DNA of 64,000 nt from Motacilla alba alba (taxonomy: Eukaryota; Chordata; Aves; Passeriformes; Motacillidae), in assembly GCF_015832195.1 (NCBI RefSeq), contig NC_052034.1, forward strand, positions 6,101,501 to 6,165,500, read 5' to 3'. The translations under genes were made by a program, and so were the position numbers. This document shows positions 50,521 through 61,752 of the stretch, piece by piece. The notes beneath the pieces are model-generated. The model saw only the letters and a program-made list of their open reading frames with translations, was not told the DNA's origin and did not search any database. Numbering within the stretch: position 1 is the first letter of the stretch; the number at the start of each line of letters is the position of its first letter.

Positions 50521-53268
50521 ACCCTGCTCTGCCTTCCTGCTGCCTTGGGGCTGGGGGTGGCTGTCTTTGGGGCACCAGCCTGCTCCGTGGATTCACGGGC
50601 CATTCATCCAGCCAGGAGGGAAAGCCCAGCTCTGCTGGAGGGACACATCTCACTGCAGGCTGCTCCCAGGGGTTGTGGATCCTGCCTGTCAGGGCTTTGG
50701 CCAGTGGAGCTTGGTGGTCTGTGGCCATGGTGCCAGCAGAGGTGACTCATCAGTGTCCACCCTGGGGGAAGCTGCAGCCCTCTGCTCTTGGCTGTGAACT
50801 GCCAGCCCCGCTCCTCTGATCCCGACGATGAGAGGCAGAACCTGTCCCTCTGTCCCCTTCTCTCAGCTGAAATGGCAGCAGGGAGGAGCTGCTGCGCTTT
50901 GTGCTGCTGCTGCAGGGATGCTGGTGCCACCAGCTGGTGACAGTCACCTTCCTCCCAGCAGCAGTGGAGGCCAGCCCAGGTGCCAGCAGCGATGCTCTGG
51001 CTCAGAGCCTGTTCCTGCTCTGGCTGCTGGCACCTTGCCAATGGGATATTGCCCCCGTCCCTGTGGCCTGCTGCACAGTGTCCCCAGGCTGCATGTCACA
51101 TGGGAGCCGATGTCTTTTGAAGAGCTGTTTCTTGTCACCGGGGGACTGATATCCTTTGAAGAGCTGTTTCTGGCTCTTCCCCTCCCTGTAGCCACCAGAC
51201 CCAGCTGCACATTAAATCCATCCAATCCATCCCTTTGGCACTGGTGCCAGCTGCCTCTTCACCTCCTTCCTGGGCAATCTGGGATGGGGCTGGGCTTTGT
51301 GGCAGCTCTACCTTGGCCTCCTCCTGGGACCAGCACATCCTGGACCAGATGAGGGACACTTTGCTCCTGTCGTGCCAATATAAAGATTAAAGGTTTTTCT
51401 GAGCCATAGAGGGGTGGAGCTTTCCCCAGTGTCCATCTGGGCATGCTGCAGGAAGGGCAGCTCCTTGGGAGCTGCAGGGCCGTGTCTGTGTTGCTAAACT
51501 CTACACAAATGGGCTCGGTCTGCTCCTCTCCCACCCCGCTTGCAAAAGGGAGAGGTCTTGAGTTGAAACCTCAGCTTTGTATCCCTGGATCATGTTATCC
51601 CAGCAAGCAAAGCAGTGAATTGAAGCGAAAATTGAAGCAGGGTTCACTCAGCCCTGTACAAAGCAAGAATTTCCTGCTGAGCCTGGCCTAAGGCATCCCC
51701 AGCAGCTGCTGCTGGGTGTGAATCAGCTGGAGCCTCCCTGCATCTGGGCTGGTCCAGGGCAGGGGCACGGGGCTGTGCTGAGCCAGCCCAGCTCAGCAGC
51801 TCACCCCGGCTGCCCTGGTTTTGGACACGAGGCATCTCCTCAAATCCTCGTCCTCTCTGTGCTGGGCCCAAGGTGGCCTGGCCCCCGCAGCAGGGGCATC
51901 CAAGGGGTGGAAGGGAACAGAGCCAGGTGCTCAGGCATGGTGGTGTAGGGAGATGCTTTGAAAGGTGGGGAGAAAGCATAACCATGGCTGCTCTCGGAGC
52001 CAGGAGGGGACAGAGCCCCAGATCAATGTTTGTGATGCTGCCAGGCACATTTGACCGAAAGCCTTGTGTCCCCCATCCCCAGCTGGAGCCCCAGGGAGGG
52101 GAGGGGGGTGTCTCTCCCAGCCCCTGCGGTGGTGGCTCATCTGCCACAGGGTGGTTATAATTAGCCCAGCCTTGACCCCGCAGCTATGCTGGGTACCGGC
52201 AGCTGAAACTGTGACTCACCGTCCCCCTGCGTCACCCCCCTGCGTCACCCACCCTGCCCCTCACCTTGCTGCTGGCTCCTTGCCGGCCGGGAGCACCAGG
52301 GAGGGGTCTGGGGGAACCGGGGGGGGGGGGGTCCCCGGGCAAGCGTTGCCGGGCAGGTGTGGGGGACAAGGAGGGGACAAGAAGGAGGAGGCACGGAGGC
52401 TGCAGCTGCGCCTGTTTTTCCCCTCCGCAGCTGGACGATGTAATCTTTGAATGCCCTTATTCCACTTAATCTGAAGGCGCGGTCCCGGCCTCTTGTGAAG
52501 GGGGGGAAATCTCCTCCCACGCGGGAGCGGGCAGCCGCTCCCCCGGGCAAACCCGGGAGAAGGAGCGCCCCGAGCCCTCTGCGGGGGGAGCGGCGCCGAG
52601 GGGCTCCCTGCCCGCACCCCAAGGGCTTGGAAGGGCTGCGAGAGATGGGGAAATGTCAGCGCGGGGTGGCCCCCGAGCTGAAAAGGCTCCCGCGCCCCTG
52701 GTGCTGGGTGGGACCGTTCACCTGAACGCTGGGATTTGGGCTGGCTCGGGTGTGATGCTTCGCAGCGCTTCCCTGCCCGCGGGGCAGGGCTGGCTCCACC
52801 CGAACCGGTCGGGCACGGGCTCACCCCTGGCTCCCGGGCCCTGGTGGGCTCACGGCATCCGCAGGGAGCTGGGTCTTGGTGCTGCGAGTGGGGTCCAGGA
52901 CGATTTGCCTGGCTGCCCCCACAGCGCCAGCAAAGACTCTGAGTGCTGCCAGTCCATCCCGAACATTTCCCCGGTGGCTCCTCTGCCTCAGTTTCCCCTT
53001 TCACATGATTGTCTTGTGCCTCGGGGGTCCTGCAGGACGGTTCCCAGCGGGTTTGGAACCAGCGGGTGACTCGGGATGCTCAGCTGTCCCCTCTGCCCGC
53101 GGGGCCTGGCCGGGCCGGCAGAGCCGGTGCAGGAATGCGGGGCTGGGAGGGTCCGGCTCCAGGACAGGCGGTCCCTGCTGCGGGGGCACTGGGGGCAGCT
53201 CGTCCCCTCGGCAGTGGGACGGGGTGGGCCGAGCAGGACAGCGCATCCAGCACCACCGCGACGACGCC
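50521..53268. other. Spacer between DTX2 and UPK3B
   Basis: No coding exon is recognised. A short direct repeat of TTTGAAGAGCTGTTTCT (about 51,114 and 51,156) and a run of 11 G near 52,321 are present. From about 52,240 the sequence becomes CpG-rich up to the UPK3B start, probably its promoter region. No TATA box could be assigned. Confidence 0.6.
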
Positions 53269-53326
53269 ATGGAGCTGCCGTGGGTGCTGCTGGCGCTGGC
53301 TGGGACGGGCGCAGCCGCGGACCTGG
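53269..53326 (+). CDS. UPK3B: UPK3B exon 1: signal peptide
   Basis: The ATG at 53,269 sits in ACGCCATGG (G at +4). It encodes a 19-residue hydrophobic leader ending AAADL, with donor CTGG/GTGACT in phase 1. A longer reading frame upstream is open but has no uroplakin similarity. Confidence 0.82.
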
Positions 53327-54931
53327 GTGACTCCCTGGGGACAGGGCAGAGGGGGACGGGGGCCTGGAGGGGCTGCGAGGCGTTTGTGCCAGGGAAGGGT
53401 TACGGGGCTGGGCACGGCTGGGGGTCCCCACCGGTGCTGGCACCTTGTGACATTCCCGTGTGCCAGCGCTGCTGCGGATGCAGGGTCAGGCGCTTGGGGA
53501 GCGGCGCAGAACGGGGGGTCCCCTGGCTCACTGCCCACTCCCCCAGCCCGGCTGCCCTACGTGCCCCAAGTGCCCCCCACGGCGCTGCTGGGCAAGGTCA
53601 CTGCCACCACCTTCGCGCTGGAGAGGCCCCGCTGCGTCTTCGACGGCCACGCCGACGCCTCCGACGCCGTGTGGCTGGCGGTGGCCTTTGCCAACGGTGA
53701 GCCCTCGCTGCTCCAGCACGACCCCCCTGGCAGGGGACACGGGGGACCCTCAGCCGCTCACCCCCAGCTGTGCCGCGCAGCATCAGCCGCCTTCAGAAAC
53801 CCGCAGTGCCGGGCTGAGGTGCCCCGGTACGAGCAGCTGCCCGCTGCCCGCTCCTACATGACCCTGGAGACGGCGGCGGCCGCGTTTTCCTGCTCGGCGC
53901 CGAGCTCGCCCGTCCTGCGGGTCGGGGGGGACACGGCCTGCAGGGAGCAGGGCAGACAGGACCCCTGCAATGGGCCCCTGCCCTCCCCGGGACCCTACAG
54001 GTAAGGCCAGAAGCCCAAATCCCGGCTGGGGTGACTCGCCGGCCGGGCCGGTTCCCCCCCGTGCCAGCCCCGCTCCCGCGGCAGGGTGAAGTTCCTGCTC
54101 ATGGGCTGCCGCGGGCCCAAGGCGGAGACGCGCTGGTCCGAGCCCATCCTCCTGCGCACAGGTACCTGTGGCACCGCCACCCCCCGCGGGTCCCCTGCCC
54201 CTCCCTGGCTGGGGTGGTGGCATCCGCAGCAGCCCCGTGCCGTCACCCCAAAAGCTGCGGGGAGAGGCGACCCCCGGTGCCGCATCCACCCCACATCCCT
54301 CGTCCTCCTCCCCCCAGCCGTCAGCCCGAGCACCATCGAGCCTGCCCCCGCTCGCCGCGGCAGCGCCGTGCTGGTCATCGCCTCCATCCTGGCCAGCCTG
54401 GGGGCCGTGCTGGCCACCGCCGTGCTCGGAGCCCTGGGGTACGGGGGGGGGCTACGGGGGGGGCAGTGTCCGCAGGGGCCTCAGGAGAACGCCCCAACTC
54501 GGCAACCCCATCAGCAGAGAAATGGAGATCTTTTTAACATTGAAAAAGCCTTTTTGTTCCTAAATTGGGGGTTTGCCGTAGTTTGCAGGAGAAAAGGCTC
54601 CCTGGGGGTGGCTGGTGCAGAGCCCCCCAGACCCCCCTTGATGCCTCTGCTTCTGTCTCCCTGCAGTGCCAAGGTGTGGGGCTCCCTGCGCCCCCAGGGC
54701 TTGGGGACCGACGCCTTCATCCGCAGATCCTACCGGACCCACCACATCCCCCCGGCCCTGCCCCAGCCCCTGCCCCCCGGCTGCGGGTGCAGCCCCCCAG
54801 GGCTGTGCCACTCTGCCCCCCAGCCCCCTGCGCCGTGTCAGACAATCGTGGAACACTTTGGGTTGGACGGGACCGTAAAGGGACCACCTCATTTCAACCC
54901 CAGTGCCACAGGCAGGGACACCTTCCACTAG
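53269..54931 (+). CDS. UPK3B: UPK3B, uroplakin-3b (complete, 6 exons; C-terminus derived from CR1)
   Basis: Exons 53269-53326, 53547-53696, 53781-54000, 54085-54161, 54318-54438 and 54667-54931 join in phases 1-1-2-1-2 into 891 nt (296 aa plus stop). The order is: signal peptide (MELPWVLLALAGTGAAA), a uroplakin-III-type luminal domain (LPYVPQVPPTALLGKVTATT, F-LERPRCVFDG, VLRVGGDTAC, PLPSPGPYRVKFLLMG, E-RWSEPILLRT), a transmembrane helix (about 184-206, VLVIASILASLGAVLATAVL), and a cytoplasmic tail with RRSYRTHHIPP, matching human KRYMTHHIPP. Uroplakin III proteins are type I membrane glycoproteins of urothelial plaques; mammalian UPK3B is also a mesothelial marker. Residues about 267-296 and the stop codon come from an antisense CR1 fragment, so this end is lineage-specific. 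Gene identity is strong; the exact 3' end is less certain. Confidence 0.9.
53547..53696 (+). CDS. UPK3B: UPK3B exon 2
   Basis: Acceptor CCACTCCCCCAG, donor CAACG/GTGAGC, phase 1-1. It encodes residues 20-69, from ARLPYVPQVP through KVTATTFALERPRCVFDG to VWLAVAFAN, nearly collinear with human UPK3B. Confidence 0.9.
53781..54000 (+). CDS. UPK3B: UPK3B exon 3
   Basis: Acceptor TGCCGCGCAG, donor CTACAG/GTAAGG, phase 1 in and 2 out. It encodes ASAAFRNPQC, SYMTLET, PVLRVGGDTAC and CNGPLPSPGPYR, the second half of the luminal domain. Confidence 0.9.
54085..54161 (+). CDS. UPK3B: UPK3B exon 4 (77 nt)
   Basis: Acceptor CGCGGCAG, donor CACAG/GTACCT. It encodes VKFLLMGCRGPKAETRWSEP followed by ILLRT. 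The 77-nt length and phases are identical in the neighbouring UPK3BL gene. Confidence 0.92.
54318..54438 (+). CDS. UPK3B: UPK3B exon 5: transmembrane segment
   Basis: Acceptor CCTCCCCCCAG, donor CTGGG/GTACGG, phase 1 in and 2 out. It encodes a juxtamembrane stretch (VSPSTIEPAPARRGS) and a 20-odd residue hydrophobic helix. Confidence 0.88.
54667..54931 (+). CDS. UPK3B: UPK3B exon 6: cytoplasmic tail running into CR1
   Basis: After CTCCCTGCAG the exon encodes AKVWGSLRPQGLGTDAFIRR, then SYRTHHIPPALPQPLPPGCG and a Pro/Cys-rich stretch. From about 54,838 the reading frame enters an antisense CR1 fragment and stops at TAG 54,929-54,931 inside it. A variant polyadenylation hexamer AGTAAA (54,943-54,948) lies just after. 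Confidence 0.8.
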
Positions 54932-54935
54932 ACTT
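54838..54935 (-). mobile_element. CR1 3' fragment, antisense, inside UPK3B terminal exon
   Basis: On the plus strand it reads CGTGGAACACTTTGGGTTGG, ACGGGACCGTAAAGG, ATTTCAACCCCAGTGCCACAGGCAGGGACACC and TTCCACTAGAC. These are the reverse complements of the successive CR1 3' blocks. It supplies about 30 codons, the stop codon and possibly the start of the 3'UTR of UPK3B. Confidence 0.87.
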
Positions 54936-54942
54936 TCTGACA

Positions 54943-54948
54943 AGTAAA
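54943..54948 (+). terminator. UPK3B: Candidate UPK3B polyadenylation signal (AGTAAA)
   Basis: AGTAAA is a known weaker variant of AATAAA and lies 12 nt after the stop codon. No canonical AATAAA occurs between the stop and the next gene's first exon. Confidence 0.35.
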
Positions 54949-55358
54949 ATCTGATTTTCATCTGCAGCTGTCTCCTCCTGGTCTTTGGCCAAGCAGGGCG
55001 GGACTGTGAAGGTGGGGGACCTCAAAAAGCACGTGGGGTCCTGGCTTGGTGGCACTTGGTGTCGGTGCGGGGGGCACTGGCTGCCACTGGTGGGGTCTGT
55101 GGGGCGCATCACCAGGGGACATCCCCTTGTGCCGGGTGACGCTGCCACCCACCCAGCCGCAAACGCAGCGGCTCTCAGCACGCCTCGCCGGCGGGCGCTC
55201 AAACATAACAAAAGCTCCCGGGGAAACGAGCCCAACCTGTTTGCCACGGGGCTGCGGCCGCGGCAGGAATGTGGGCGGTTGGTGACCACAGGCGGGTCCC
55301 AGGGGACGCGGAGCCCCGGCAGCCGCACTCCCGCCCTCGGCACCCAGGCGGCCGCATC

Positions 55359-55431
55359 ATGCTCCCGCTGCTCCCGCTGCTCCCGCTGCTCCCGCTGCTG
55401 CCGCTGCTCCTGCCCGCGGCACACGGCACAG
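55359..55431 (+). CDS. UPK3BL1: UPK3BL1 exon 1: repeat-encoded signal peptide
   Basis: The ATG at 55,359 is followed by four perfect CTCCCGCTG units and one CTGCCGCTG, giving (LPL)5, then LLPAAHGT and donor CACAG/GTGAGT in phase 1. Confidence 0.85.
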
Positions 55432-57257
55432 GTGAGTCCAGCGGCGCCGTCGGGATGGGCTCGGGGCTCCCCTGGCACCGCGGGGCTCCCCCGTGCTCAG
55501 GCACTGGACCCCGCGAGGTGTGGGGCAGCTGCTGCCCGCTTCTCTGGGTCCTGTTCTGGGTGCCACCTCCAGTCCCTGGTGTCGCTGGTCTTGGTTGACT
55601 GGCACAGTGTGGGCTTCTGTGGAGGTCCGTACTGGAGTCCACCCGGACCCCCCGAACCTGGAGGCGTAGGGATGCTGATGCCCCCCCCCCCCCCCCCCCA
55701 CTCTGGGTGCCACCCCAAGTGTCCCTGCTGTCACCCGCCCTGGTCCTGCGGGTGTTCCCCGCGGCTGGGAGCATGGAGTGTTTTTGCTTCCTCTTTGAAT
55801 GCAACACGTGTCTGAGCCCACACTGGGGCTGGGAGGGGAGCGGGGGCCCCGCTGCCGAGATCCCAGAGTGCAGCTGCCTCCTGCCCCTGTCCCCACCCCG
55901 AGCCCCGGCGCCGCCGGTGAGAGCTCCCGTTCCGGGGCTGCAGCGGGGGATCCACACCCTCCACCGCATCCCCTCGGCTTCTCCCGCAGCCCTGGTTGGG
56001 CCCAGGCCAGCCCTGACCCAGGAGCAGCTGGAGGGGGTGATAACTGCCTCCACCTTCGTGCTGGACCAGCCCCGCTGCACCTTCAAAGACTACGGCAACG
56101 CCGTCATCTGGCTGGTGGTGGCCCTGGACAAGGGTAGGTGGGAGCAGCCCAGGGCAGGGGCCGTGCAGGGGTCCCTGTGCCCCCCACCAAGTCCCCCCTC
56201 ACCCCCATCCCCATCCCCATCCCTGCAGATGCATCCACCTTCAACAACAGCGCGGAGCCGGGCACTCCCGAGACCGCATTCCAGAGCTTCCCGGACCCCG
56301 TCCGTGCCTACATGACCCTCAATGCCACCCTGGGCAGCTACCCCTGCCCCAAGCCCACCGGGGACATCACGGTGCTGCGCGTGGGCAGCGAGACGAGCTG
56401 CGCCCAGGACGTGATGAGACCCACGTGCAATGGCCCCCTGCCCGGCCCCGGGCCCTACCGGTGAGCCTGCCCGTGGGACCTGCCCCCCCCGGGCTGCCGG
56501 CGGCCCCCCGCCCCACCGGACCGTGGCCAACCTCCCTTTCGTTCTCAGGGTGAAGTTCCTCGCCCTGGAGGGCTCTGTGCCCGTGGCGGAGACAGCCTGG
56601 TCGGCGCCAATCATGCTGAGGACAGGTACTGGGGCTCGTGCTGTCCCCAGAGCCAGCCCACAGGGGGGATATGAGGTGGTCCTGGGCCTGTGGGGTGGTC
56701 CCAGGGGGCTGAATGCTGAGCAACAGTGGTTTGGGGTGAGGGCTCCTGTGAGCAGCTGGGGAAGCTGAGGCAGGGCTCTGCCGCGGGTGTCACTCGTGCA
56801 CGGTGGCGCCGTGTGAGGGCACGTTGGGTTGGCACACACGAGCACACCGTCACCCTTCCGGACCCCCGAGCCACTGCGGGGTGTGCGTCCCCGCATCCTG
56901 CTCCCTCTCCCCCTGCTCTGTCCCCAGCCAAACCCCCCAGCGCCATCCCCACGACGCGCAGCGGGCACAACGCCGGCATGATCGCCATCACCACCATCCT
57001 CTCCATCCTCTTCGCCATCCTCCTGGCCGGGCTGGTGGTCATGCTCGTCTTCTGGGGGTGAGTGCCACCACCCGGGCGTGCTGGGCAGGGTGAGGGTGAC
57101 GCCGTCATCCCTCCGTCCCCACCCTCATCCCTCGCCCCCTTCCCTCCCCAGCTCGGACTCCTGCGGCGGCAGCGGCTCCTTCAGCAAGCCGGAGTCGGTG
57201 ACGGTGCGGCGGTACAACACGCACCACGTCTATGACCAGCCGGCCGCCCGGCTCTGA
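55359..57257 (+). CDS. UPK3BL1: UPK3BL1-type uroplakin-3b-like protein (complete, 6 exons)
   Basis: Exons 55359-55431, 55990-56133, 56229-56460, 56549-56625, 56928-57057 and 57152-57257 join in phases 1-1-2-1-2 into 762 nt (253 aa plus stop). The order is: leucine/proline signal peptide, uroplakin-III luminal domain (ITASTFVLDQPRCTF, VIWLVVALDK, ITVLRVGSETSCA, CNGPLPGPGPYRVKFLALEG, AETAWSAPIMLRT), transmembrane helix (about 191-217), and a cytoplasmic tail with VRRYNTHHVYDQP. Sequons occur at N78 and N104. The tail resembles human UPK3BL1 (VRRYTTHLAF), and human UPK3BL1 also neighbours RASA4. It is a tandem paralogue of UPK3B 430 bp upstream, in the same orientation. Its role is presumably a membrane glycoprotein of uroplakin type; function in birds is not known to me. 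Confidence 0.9.
55681..55699. repeat. C homopolymer in UPK3BL1 intron 1
   Basis: A run of about 19 C lies between exon 1 and exon 2. Length in the assembly may be unreliable. Confidence 0.9.
55990..56133 (+). CDS. UPK3BL1: UPK3BL1 exon 2
   Basis: Acceptor CTTCTCCCGCAG, donor AAGG/GTAGGT, phase 1-1. It encodes ALVGPRPALTQEQLEGVITA, STFVLDQPRCTFKDYG and VIWLVVALDK. Confidence 0.92.
56229..56460 (+). CDS. UPK3BL1: UPK3BL1 exon 3
   Basis: Acceptor CATCCCTGCAG, donor CTACCG/GTGAGC, phase 1 in and 2 out. It carries both sequons (NNS, NAT), three cysteines and the GPLPGPGPYR signature. Confidence 0.92.
56549..56625 (+). CDS. UPK3BL1: UPK3BL1 exon 4 (77 nt)
   Basis: Acceptor TTTCGTTCTCAG, donor GACAG/GTACTG. 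It encodes VKFLALEGSVPVAETAWSAP followed by IMLRT. Same length and phases as UPK3B exon 4. Confidence 0.93.
56928..57057 (+). CDS. UPK3BL1: UPK3BL1 exon 5: transmembrane segment
   Basis: Acceptor CTGTCCCCAG, donor TGGGG/GTGAGT, phase 1 in and 2 out. It encodes a Pro/Thr/Arg juxtamembrane stretch and the helix MIAITTILSILFAILLAGLV plus VMLVFWG. Confidence 0.92.
57152..57257 (+). CDS. UPK3BL1: UPK3BL1 exon 6: cytoplasmic tail
   Basis: Acceptor CCCTCCCCAG. It encodes SDSCGGSGSFSKPESVTVRR, then YNTHHVYDQPAARL and TGA at 57,255-57,257. Confidence 0.92.
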
Positions 57258-57371
57258 GCCCCGCCGCCCCCGGAGCGGGGTAAATGTGACCCATCCCCGT
57301 GGGTGACACCGGCCCGCCGCCGTGGGGACACGGCCGGAGCCGCCGCCCGGCACGGGGCGGCGCAGCGGGAC

Positions 57372-57377
57372 ATTAAA
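57372..57377 (+). terminator. UPK3BL1: UPK3BL1 polyadenylation signal (ATTAAA)
   Basis: ATTAAA, the commonest variant signal, lies 115 nt after the stop, in GGGACATTAAAGGCTTTTCC. The resulting 3'UTR would be short (about 130-140 nt). Confidence 0.75.
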
Positions 57378-57379
57378 GG

Positions 57380-59110
57380 CTTTTCCGCATGCTTGGCGCC
57401 CGGCCTGTGCCCCCTGTTTGGGACCCCTCGATGCCCCCCGGAACGCCCCAAGGTCCCCTGCACCCCGCAGGGCAGGGGCGGCCGGGGATGCTCTGCAGTG
57501 GAAGACGTTGTCACACCCGGCTGTGGCACCGGTGCCACCTGTGCCCCAGACGGGGAAAAGTCCCCTGAGCGCAGGGCAGCGAGGGGAGCCTGGCCCCAGC
57601 CCTGCCGCTGGGGTGAGGGCACTGAAATGCCCCGGGGGGGGGGTGGGGGTGTTTCTCCAACCCCTTTTATCCCACACTGATCCCTCCTGACCAAGCCCAG
57701 AGGAGGGGCTCCCGCACCCCGAAATGACCCAATCCCTCCCGGCTGCAGCTCGGGACCCTCTGAGAGCCAGGAGACCCCAAAAGGGAACCCCGGGGTGTCT
57801 GATCCTGCACCGGGGGATACCCCTGAGCCTGACCTGGGGGATGTGGGGCTGATCCTGCGCCCTGAGCCCGATCCAGGCGATGTGGGGCGGATCCTGCACT
57901 GGGGTGTTGGTCCCTGACCCAGATCCAGGGGATGTGGGGCTGATCCTGCGCTGGTGACGGGTGGGCTGGGTGGGGAGGGGAAGCTGATCCTGCACCAAGG
58001 CTGGAAGGAACTGGATCCATCATTGCTGATCCTACAGTGGGGCGTGGGGCTCTGGTGATGATCTCAGGGCTGAGGATACCCTGATCCTGCAGCCCGGGAA
58101 GGAGGAGACCCCGCTGGGGCTGGAGACAGCCCCGTTATGGGTGGAGCCGGGGCAGTGTGTGTGTAATTACACACTCCATACACCTGTGCACTGTGTACCT
58201 ACTCACACCATACCCAAGCATTAAGTGCCCCGTTGTCCCCGCAGTCGCAGCGCCAGGGGCAGTGTCACCCTGCCAGCCCAGGCGGGTCACTGCGCCCTTT
58301 CGGGGTGTCCTTGTGCCGCCGGGGGGGTGTTAGCCTCCTGCCCCCCCGCTGCCGGAGCCGCCTCCGTGGAGCCCGGCCAGGGGAAATCAAGCAAATCCGG
58401 CGATTAACTCCTGCCGAGATCCGCGTGGGAGCAGCGCGGGGATGGCTCCATCCGGCCGGCGCGGGTCCTGCCCGCCCTGCACCCGAAATGAAGCGACTGC
58501 TTCACCTGCACTGGCTGCGGGGCTGTGGCGGCTGTCACCTGCCACGTGTGTGTCGCTGGAGCTGGGACATGTGGCCCCGACCGGCTGTGGGGCTGCAGCT
58601 GGCACACGGGGAGCCTCGTGGGGCGGTGGCGGGGACTGCGCCTTGTCCCCTTGCTGTCCCCCTGTGCGGGGGAGGCAGAGGGGCAGCGCTGTGGGAACAG
58701 AGCGGTGTGTTCCCAGCGTGTCCCTGCAGCGTCCCCACAGTGTCCCCGCGGCGAAAATGCCAAGGACCTTCTCGGCCGGCACAGCCCCGAGCCGCAGCGC
58801 TGGTGCCGGTCGGGTCCCCGAGTCCGGGTGGGTCTCGCCGTGGGGGGGTTCTCCGACCCTCCGCGGCTGTTTAGGGCACCAAGCACCCAGAAATGCCCCT
58901 GTCCTCGGGCGCGCTGCAGCCGGGGGCGCAGTACTTGACAAACAGACAAAAACCAGGTTAAAAATCAATAAACCCGTGCAGGTTTGGGGCGCAGAGCGGC
59001 GCGGCCGATGCTGCAGCCCCCAGGTTCGGGGTGGGTTCGATCCAATCCAGGCGGGCGCGGGCTGGGCAGGCTGGGGCTGAACTGCCCTGGAGCCGCGGGC
59101 GGTACCGGGG
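57380..59110. other. Spacer between UPK3BL1 and RASA4
   Basis: GC-rich with no recognised coding exon. Between about 57,800 and 57,960 there are three imperfect copies of a unit of about 55 bp containing GATGTGGGGCTGATCCTGC. Several long frames here and in the adjoining minisatellite are open only because of GC-rich low complexity. Confidence 0.6.
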
Positions 59111-60480: not shown

Positions 60481-61242
60481 GCTCCCCCTGGGGTGCCACG
60501 GGGCAGGGCTGTCCCCACCACCGAGGGACCCTCGCAGGGACCCCCGGACGCGCAGCAGGACCCGGTACCTCTGTCCCCAAAGGAGCAGGGGCTGCCCCGG
60601 TGCTGTGTCCCCAGCTCCATCCCCGGCTCCATCCCACCTGGCTGAGGTCCGGGGGCAGCCCTTGGCTCGGGATTTCCCTCCCAGAAAATCCCGGTGCTCC
60701 CCTCATCGCTCTGATCCTTGTGGGGCGGGATGTAGGGACAGCCCCGGGGTGGCCCCAGCCGCCACCACGGCAGCGGGAAGCTGCTGAGGAGCGCTCGGCA
60801 GCCGGAAAACCAGCAAAAATCCCTGCAGCCGTCATGGAAAAAGAGGATAAACAAGGAAAGAAACATGACTTTTTTTTTTTTTTTTTTCTTTTCTTTTTTT
60901 AAATCCCGTGTGTCAGGGCCTGATTTTTAAATCCCTTGGCACAGCTCCCCGCCGGGGCTGGACCCAGCACGGGCGGGCTCTGCCTTTCGGGGGAGCCGGG
61001 GAGCCGCAGCTTTCCGGACCGCTGCCTTTGGGACGTGGCGCTGGGCCGGGACAGCGGGGAGGGAAACCCGAGCGCGACCTTGGCCGTGGCTGCCCCGGCC
61101 CCTTCCCCGCTGCGCAGCGCCCCGGGGGATCCGGTTCCCTGCCCTGGCACCGCTTTTGGGATCGCTGCTTTCCTCCGGGGAATTCCCTCCGCGCGGCGTC
61201 CCCAGCTGGGACCCTGCCGGCAGCAGCCTGGGGTGATGGAGC

Positions 61243-61752
61243 ACCCCCAGATCCCGAGGGGACCCCCCAGATCCCCAGGATCACCCCCAAATCCCCGGGG
61301 GGAACCCCCAGATCCCCCAGGATCACCCCCAAATCCCCGGGGGGAACCCCCAGGATCACCCCCAAATCCCGGGGGGAACCCCAGGATCACCCCCAAATCC
61401 CGGGGGGAACCTCCAGATCCCCCAGGATCACCCCCAAATCCCTGGGGGGAACCCCCAGGATCACCCCCAAATCCCCGGGGGAACCCCCAGATCCCCCAGG
61501 ATCACCCCAAAATCCCGGGGGGAACCCCCAGATCCCCCAGGATCACCCCCAAATCCCCGGGGGAACCCCCAGATCCCCCAGGATCACCCCCAAATCCCCG
61601 GGGGGAACCCCCAGATCCCCCAGGATCACCCCCAAGTCCCCGGGGGAACCCCCAGATCCCCCAGGATCACCTCCAGATCCCCGGGGGAACCCCCAGATCT
61701 CCCAGAATCACCTCCAGATCCCCGGGGAGAACCCCCAGATCCCCCAGGATTT
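61243..61752. repeat. CCCCCAGATCCCCCAGGATCACCCCCAAATCCCCGGGGGGAA minisatellite in RASA4 intron 1
   Basis: About a dozen copies of a unit of roughly 42 bp, with some shorter copies (about 30 bp) that lack the CAGATCCC block. Each unit contains a C5 tract and a CCCCGGGGG palindrome. C is strongly favoured on the plus strand. Confidence 0.93.

What the first reader, a model, noticed from the sequence alone, without database searches (positions are those of the whole stretch)
54838..54948. UPK3B C-terminus, stop codon and perhaps poly(A) signal derived from an antisense CR1
Seen: the terminal exon of UPK3B reads through the conserved RSYRTHHIPP tail and a Pro/Cys-rich stretch straight into a CR1 3' fragment in antisense orientation. 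About 30 residues (267-296) and the TAG stop are CR1-derived, and an AGTAAA lies 12 nt later. Known: mammalian UPK3B ends about 20-25 residues after THHIPP and has no such tail. Inference: CR1 insertion removed or replaced the original stop and lengthened the cytoplasmic tail, a possible lineage-specific gain in a plaque protein.
Basis: partly seen in the sequence, partly recalled or inferred. Interest (0 to 1): 0.75.

Follow-up and report, generated by a model that had tools for sequence, protein, structure and literature searches.

The report
Retrotransposon-made tail end on songbird UPK3B
In songbirds an old CR1 retrotransposon fragment sits just before the original stop codon of the membrane-protein gene UPK3B, so in the gene model the last 30 amino acids and the stop come from the retrotransposon; it is a clean, datable example of a known kind of change, with no sign yet that the new tail does anything.

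Summary
The spliced UPK3B model encodes 296 aa; its last 30 codons (54839-54928) and TAG (54929-54931) lie in an antisense CR1-type 3' fragment with many genomic copies. The interpretation needs three corrections. (1) The old stop was not removed: non-passerine UPK3B ends PC-P-A-K/E at this point, and the DNA after the CR1 reads TCT GAC AAG TAA, a likely relic of that end, now out of frame. A net 97 nt separated it from its gene. (2) AGTAAA is not CR1-derived; it lies in single-copy flank and overlaps the relic stop. (3) The insertion is old and shared: CR1 sequence appears in 22 of 22 listed oscine entries that read past Cys266; 52 listed non-passerine entries, 3 parrots included, end in the PxK/E/Q form without it; 3 suboscines read CHRN/CHGN, CR1-like but not proven. 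Tail length is what antisense CR1 copies often give (26 of 39), and the tail's divergence fits near-neutral drift. No RNA data were available: translation and polyadenylation are inferred. Lead: the ancestral stop may have lain inside the poly(A) signal (xAG|TAA|A).

The parts
53269..53326 (+). UPK3B exon 1, coding part (ATG at 53269)
   Evidence: GT donor; homologues
53547..53696 (+). UPK3B exon 2
53781..54000 (+). UPK3B exon 3
54085..54161 (+). UPK3B exon 4
54318..54438 (+). UPK3B exon 5 (transmembrane helix)
   Evidence: helix 184-206 in a low-confidence model of the relative P0001
54667..54931 (+). UPK3B terminal coding exon up to the CR1-encoded TAG
54836..54838 (+). TGT, Cys266, last codon before the CR1; the Cys is invariant in the 22 aligned sequences
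54839..54935 (+). net 97-nt insertion (remainder 1 on division by 3)
   Evidence: boundaries inferred, uncertain by a few bases
54841..54933 (-). CR1 (or CR1-tailed SINE) 3' fragment, antisense to the gene
54839..54928 (+). 30 codons of CR1-derived C-terminus
54929..54931 (+). TAG stop, inside the CCACTAGAC motif of the CR1 copies
54936..54947 (+). probable relic of the ancestral last codons and stop (TCT GAC AAG TAA), now out of frame behind the new stop
54943..54948 (+). AGTAAA, the only one of 13 poly(A)-signal-like hexamers tested that occurs in 54667-55400; not CR1-derived

Best explanation
A 5'-truncated CR1-type 3' end inserted in antisense into the last coding exon of UPK3B, directly after the Cys codon that precedes the last three codons (P-A-K-stop) of the ancestral gene, in an ancestor of the sampled oscines and probably of suboscines too. 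The net 97-nt insertion shifts the frame; ribosomes now read 30 codons of antisense CR1 and stop at a TAG in a conserved CR1 motif. The old stop stays downstream as an out-of-frame relic, and the AGTAAA that overlaps it is the likely poly(A) signal, so the message can still end normally. Three residues were exchanged for 30 at the end of a probably disordered cytoplasmic tail; the change was most likely tolerated and fixed by drift. Shown: the sequence, its copies, the gene model, the ends of relatives, the relic match. Inferred: insertion date, transcript end, translation, neutrality.
For: Copy matches end at about 54934; 75/93 to the copy majority. 20 listed oscine entries (19 species) continue past Cys266 with CR1 residues: 18 filed so, plus P0010 (ends CQ, misfiled by my pattern) and P0027; P0069 and P0113 read the same CR1 in another frame, making 22 of 22. 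7 complete entries from 6 species plus the window share the 30-residue tail without indels. 52 non-passerine entries end PxK/E/Q or a close variant. Joining the two flanks reads ...PPAPCSDK*; the relic matches the back-translated end at 9 of 10 constrained bases, which 0.55% of window positions reach within seven offsets (the motif was written after seeing both sides). Flank single-copy. PMC8665684 (passages) reports a large CR1 expansion, mainly CR1-X, between the New Zealand wren split and the oscine radiation.
Against: No other bird's DNA was available, so the empty site was seen only as protein ends. The read-through ibis model P0037, which could have shown the flank, did not align better than chance (0.137 of random stretches as good; 4 of 60). 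12 of the 20 oscine ends come from partial models that stop two or three residues into the CR1, and P0010 stops after one. Only 124 hits were seen; 109 of the 229 hits were not listed. Malurus cyaneus (P0069) changes frame upstream of the CR1, so the tail may be lost there, unless the assembly or model is wrong.
Confidence: 0.85

Rival explanations
1. Exaptation: the CR1 tail was kept by selection because it does something in the cytoplasmic tail of UPK3B.
For: Same 30-residue length and end in the window and all 7 complete entries; 0 of 21 pairs (7 sequences incl. the window) gapped in the tail, while the Pro/Cys stretch before it has gaps in 14 of 21 pairs, each leaving the tail in frame.
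Against: Mean pairwise tail identity 0.735 against 0.880 in the ectodomain; simulated drift without constraint gives 0.765 and 0.708 at nucleotide distances 0.12 and 0.15, which I recall as ordinary for such pairs. Stops would be gained in only 15-19% of cases at those distances, so their absence says little. Complete models are a survivor-biased sample. 26 of 39 genome copies give 29-37 residues in this frame by themselves.
Confidence: 0.15
2. One reading: the CR1 supplied the poly(A) signal and the original stop was lost.
For: AGTAAA lies only 11 nt after the CR1 TAG.
Against: Copy matches stop at about 54934, the copy majority continues CAGGTTGC where the window has TTTCTGACAAG, and 54934-55357 found only itself.
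Confidence: 0.04
3. The tail is rarely or never translated: UPK3B messages use another end, for example splicing from exon 5 or 6 to a downstream exon.
For: Some predicted models splice past the site (P0054, P0072, P0025, P0051) or stop inside intron 5 (P0068, P0110, P0115).
Against: 7 complete oscine entries use this end, and complete non-passerine models end in the homologous exon. All are predictions. No GTRAG donor motif was found in 54667-54960. In the window intron 5 (228 nt) is open in frame, so its retention would still lead to the CR1 tail and TAG (ORF 54035-54931).
Confidence: 0.12
4. The fragment is the CR1-like tail of a passerine SINE (TguSINE1) rather than of a CR1 itself.
For: TguSINE1 has a tail derived from CR1-X1_Pass; SINE activity began in the ancestor of Eupasseres and ceased before the oscine diversification (PMC5729268, passages).
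Against: Only about 93 nt of 3' end are present, so the part that would tell the two apart is missing; the SINE's four diagnostic bases were not tested.
Confidence: 0.15

Closest known systems
Transposed elements in last exons of vertebrate genes (PMC2911107, passages read)
   Same: A retroelement lengthens the last exon of a gene; chicken was among the species analysed.
   Different: Its passages say such insertions usually affect the UTR; here coding residues and the stop are replaced.
CR1 / CR1-X1_Pass retroposons of passerines (PMC8665684 and PMC5729268, passages read)
   Same: Truncated 3' end, many copies, activity at the inferred time.
   Different: Sits inside a coding exon; subfamily not assigned here.
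UPK3b and its tandem relative UPK3c (UPK3BL) (PMC3922775, passages read)
   Same: Both genes side by side in the window; homologous ectodomain, membrane helix and THH motif.
   Different: The C-terminal 30 residues of this UPK3b are foreign; UPK3c ends YNTHHVYDQPAARL (read by eye).

Membership tests
CR1 LINE 3' end | dispersed similar copies in the genome | tested here: met
   39 other places among the 40 scored of 377 candidates. The name CR1 itself is recalled; no repeat library was on hand
CR1 LINE 3' end | 3' terminal octamer repeat (ATTCTRTG; antisense CAYAGAAT) | tested here: inconclusive
   copy majority reads CATAGAATCATAGAATGG; the window has a decayed CAGACAATCGTGGAACAC; octamer from PMC5729268 passages
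CR1 LINE 3' end | 5' truncation, element sequence stops abruptly | tested here: met
   similarity ends at CACTAGAC, about 54933
CR1 LINE 3' end | diagnostic bases (CR1-X1_Pass against TguSINE1) | not tested
   no repeat library available
UPK3B orthologue | full-length similarity to annotated avian UPK3B | tested here: met
   P0001 90% over 100% (an unnamed product), P0004 uroplakin-3b 87% over 100%, P0003 Motacilla alba UPK3B 100% rounded over 84% (one mismatch seen)
UPK3B orthologue | uroplakin 3 family, single membrane helix | tested here: met
   only PDB sequence match at 0.001 is uroplakin 3A, 5.6e-13; helix 184-206 in a low-confidence model of P0001. Pfam gave no family above its cut-off
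UPK3B orthologue | single locus next to UPK3c | tested here: met
   all 6 protein matches lie on contig C19: five in UPK3B, one at 41% in the neighbour
TE-derived coding C-terminus | element codons in the mature mRNA and protein | not testable with these tools
   no RNA or peptide data

The most novel reading that the evidence does not exclude
In ancestral Neoaves the UPK3B stop codon lay inside the poly(A) signal (xAG|TAA|A), which would explain why the last residue varies only among K, E and Q (the NAR codons) by first-base changes; the passerine CR1 then pulled the two jobs apart, supplying a new stop and leaving the signal free of coding duty, and the new 30-residue tail later became useful.
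Probability: 0.2. Interest if true: 0.55.

Novelty: new member of a known kind. Interest (0 to 1): 0.36.

Why it matters
It lays out a case of a retroposon rewriting the end of a conserved vertebrate protein, with the old stop apparently still readable beside the new one and a date bracketed by parrots and oscines. It could serve as a presence/absence marker for early passerine branching (New Zealand wrens would decide), and the stop-inside-signal idea is cheap to test. Work on songbird uroplakins should not assume the C-terminus of other birds.

Tried and rejected
CR1-derived poly(A) signal: rejected. Loss of the original stop: rejected in favour of a relic. Using the read-through ibis model P0037 to recover the empty-site flank: neither the ungapped match (0.137 of 2000 random stretches as good) nor the gapped one (4 of 60) beat chance; dropped as evidence. 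A protein search limited to residues 257-296 gave one candidate and no hit; a search of residues 205-296 of P0001 gave 81 hits, 4 of them new. Rfam at gathering thresholds: no hit in 53000-58000. NCBIfam: none. AlphaFold model of P0001: mean pLDDT 45.7, the tail almost all below 50 with no element; uninformative beyond likely disorder. In print: searches for uroplakin with birds (20 of 28 papers listed), UPK3B with avian (15 of 34 listed), uroplakin with passerine (0), and CR1 with exonization, with stop codon, with exapted (0) or with coding exons, plus one on novel stop codons from transposable elements listed no paper that I recognised by title or abstract start as describing this; most listed papers were not opened. 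One search for a poly(A) signal overlapping a stop codon listed one paper, on octopus by its title, not opened.

A caution on my own counting: the pattern that defined the non-passerine class required a final K, E or Q (or named endings with them), so the K/E/Q result is partly built in. By eye, the 33 'other' rows hold no neoavian that reaches the PC site and ends there in another residue: P0096 reads CPAE and then continues, P0037 changes frame, the rest are passerines, truncated or spliced elsewhere, or the 5 galliform and palaeognath sequences, which end differently (P0107, P0108, P0109, P0111, P0112). Order names and the oscine/suboscine split are from general knowledge; the taxonomy tool gave no suborder. 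In one search the copies were read behind the window's own TGTCA, so their first C and the CA of the next codon are given, not observed.

Full report
What is there. The window is from a passerine, very likely the white wagtail: the closest partial match is Motacilla alba UPK3B (P0003, 100% rounded over 84% of the query; one mismatch). The genome itself is unnamed. The UPK3B model has six coding exons with GT/AG introns and 296 residues. The terminal exon runs through RSYRTHHIPP and a Pro/Cys stretch to Cys266 (54836-54838), then 30 codons and TAG 54929-54931. UPK3c (UPK3BL) starts 427 nt further on at 55359 (read by eye; name after PMC3922775, passages).

The repeat. A genome search with 54838-54948 scored 40 of 377 candidates: the locus and 39 other places at 78-88% identity, none of the 39 extending past query position 97. 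All 39 were aligned: the window agrees with the per-column majority at 75 of 93 positions, 54841-54933. That is a Jukes-Cantor distance of about 0.22 (my arithmetic), biased because the copies were chosen for similarity to this one. With recalled passerine rates of 2-3 changes per site per billion years it fits an age of many tens of millions of years. After the CACTAGAC motif the copy majority continues CAGGTTGC and the window does not; 54934-55357 finds only itself in the genome. So the fragment is a truncated CR1-type 3' end in antisense. The name CR1 is recalled from its sequence; whether it came from a CR1 or from the tail of the related passerine SINE was not tested (PMC5729268, passages).

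The old end. 124 protein hits were seen (120 of 229 listed, 4 more). One search filed 18 as CR1-tailed, 53 as ending in the PxK/E/Q form, 3 as CHRN/CHGN, 33 as other, truncated or alternative and 17 without the exon. One of the 53, P0010 (Vidua), is an oscine ending in CQ and belongs with the CR1 set; P0027 from the 'other' set has the full tail. That leaves 52 non-passerine entries (one of them, P0123, unnamed and placed by its sequence), including 3 parrots, that end PAK (22), PAE (15) or a variant. The flank behind the CR1 reads TCT GAC AAG TAA; joining the flanks gives PPAPCSDK-stop, against PPAPCPAK in relatives and CPDK or CPDE in P0095 and P0106. It matches the back-translated motif at 9 of 10 constrained bases; 0.55% of window positions do as well within seven offsets, with the motif written after both sides were known. 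I conclude that the insertion fell between the Cys codon and the last three codons, with a net length of 97 nt, and that the old stop is still there, 13 nt past the new one and out of frame. The attempt to support this with the flank of an ibis model failed to beat chance.

Who has it. All 20 listed oscine entries readable past Cys266 continue with CR1 residues (CQR, CQT, CQK, CQ or GQR), among them Climacteris, Malurus, a honeyeater and a jay (names); 7 of them show the whole tail, 12 only two or three residues of it and 1 a single residue. Two more, P0069 and P0113, read the CR1 in the window's second frame, making 22 of 22. The three suboscine entries that reach the site read CHRN, CHRN and CHGN; 18 of 39 CR1 copies read behind the window's flank begin CHRI (where C and CA are given by the flank), so I think the insertion is there too with a shifted frame, but this is inference from three residues. 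New Zealand wrens are not among the listed hits. A CR1 expansion between the wren split and the oscine radiation is reported in PMC8665684 (passages).

Is the tail useful? In the window and 6 other species the 30 residues show a mean pairwise identity of 0.735, against 0.880 for the ectodomain, with 0 of 21 pairs gapped (the Ensembl zebra finch duplicate was left out of the averages). Random drift of the 90 nt yields 0.765 at distance 0.12 and 0.708 at 0.15, with a stop in 15% and 19% of cases, so neither the identity nor the lack of stops requires selection. The lack of gaps is mildly suggestive. The length is unremarkable: 26 of 39 copies would give 29-37 residues in this frame, the other 13 give 1-22. 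AlphaFold gave no structure to the tail of P0001, with low confidence throughout. Mouse Upk3b is dispensable (PMC4229118, title and passages). I therefore rate tolerated drift above exaptation.

The poly(A) motif. AGTAAA at 54943 is the only one of 13 signal-like hexamers found in 54667-55400 and contains the relic TAA. Among the 52 non-passerine entries the last residue is K 32, E 18, Q 2, the residues of NAR codons; an order-level star count with K ancestral gives 12 changes (a resolved tree would give fewer), all explicable at the first codon base and none at the second. With equal odds that would be 0.0002, or 0.004 if only 8 changes are real. This hints that the nucleotides AG-TAA-A, not the residue, were conserved, as if the stop lay within the poly(A) signal. 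The class was selected by a pattern that demanded K, E or Q; by eye no neoavian was lost by that, while 5 galliform and palaeognath entries end differently. No nucleotide sequence of these species was seen, so it stays a lead.

Verdict. Confirmed observation, partly corrected interpretation, new member of a known kind.

Noticed in passing
window 55170-55290: A block upstream of UPK3c is read as coding tail (..RRRALKHNK.S.GNEPNLFA.GLR..QECGRLV) in predicted models of two suboscines (P0054, P0072); in the window the same frame is open. More likely a conserved promoter or leader of UPK3c than UPK3B coding sequence.
   Followed up: partly
window 54439-54666: Intron 5 of UPK3B is 228 nt, a multiple of three, and stop-free in the exon frame (ORF 54035-54931), so its retention would add 76 residues and keep the tail; in some relatives (e.g. 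P0068, P0110) the predicted protein stops inside it.
   Followed up: partly
window 55359-57257: Tandem relative UPK3c/UPK3BL with a run of PLL units in its signal peptide and an ATTAAA at 57372; gene ends read by eye.
   Followed up: partly
window 61240-61740: Minisatellite-like array of units such as AACCCCCAGATCCCCCAGGATCACCCCCAAATCCCCGGGGGG, seen by eye, behind the start of the next gene.
   Followed up: no
window 59727 onward: First coding exon MARRSALSIRIVEGRNLPAKDM, which looks like a RASA4/RASAL-type C2 domain start (recalled, not searched).
   Followed up: no
P0069 (Malurus cyaneus): The model reads the CR1 in another frame, apparently after a one-base change upstream, so the tail may be lost there, or the assembly or model is wrong.
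   Followed up: partly
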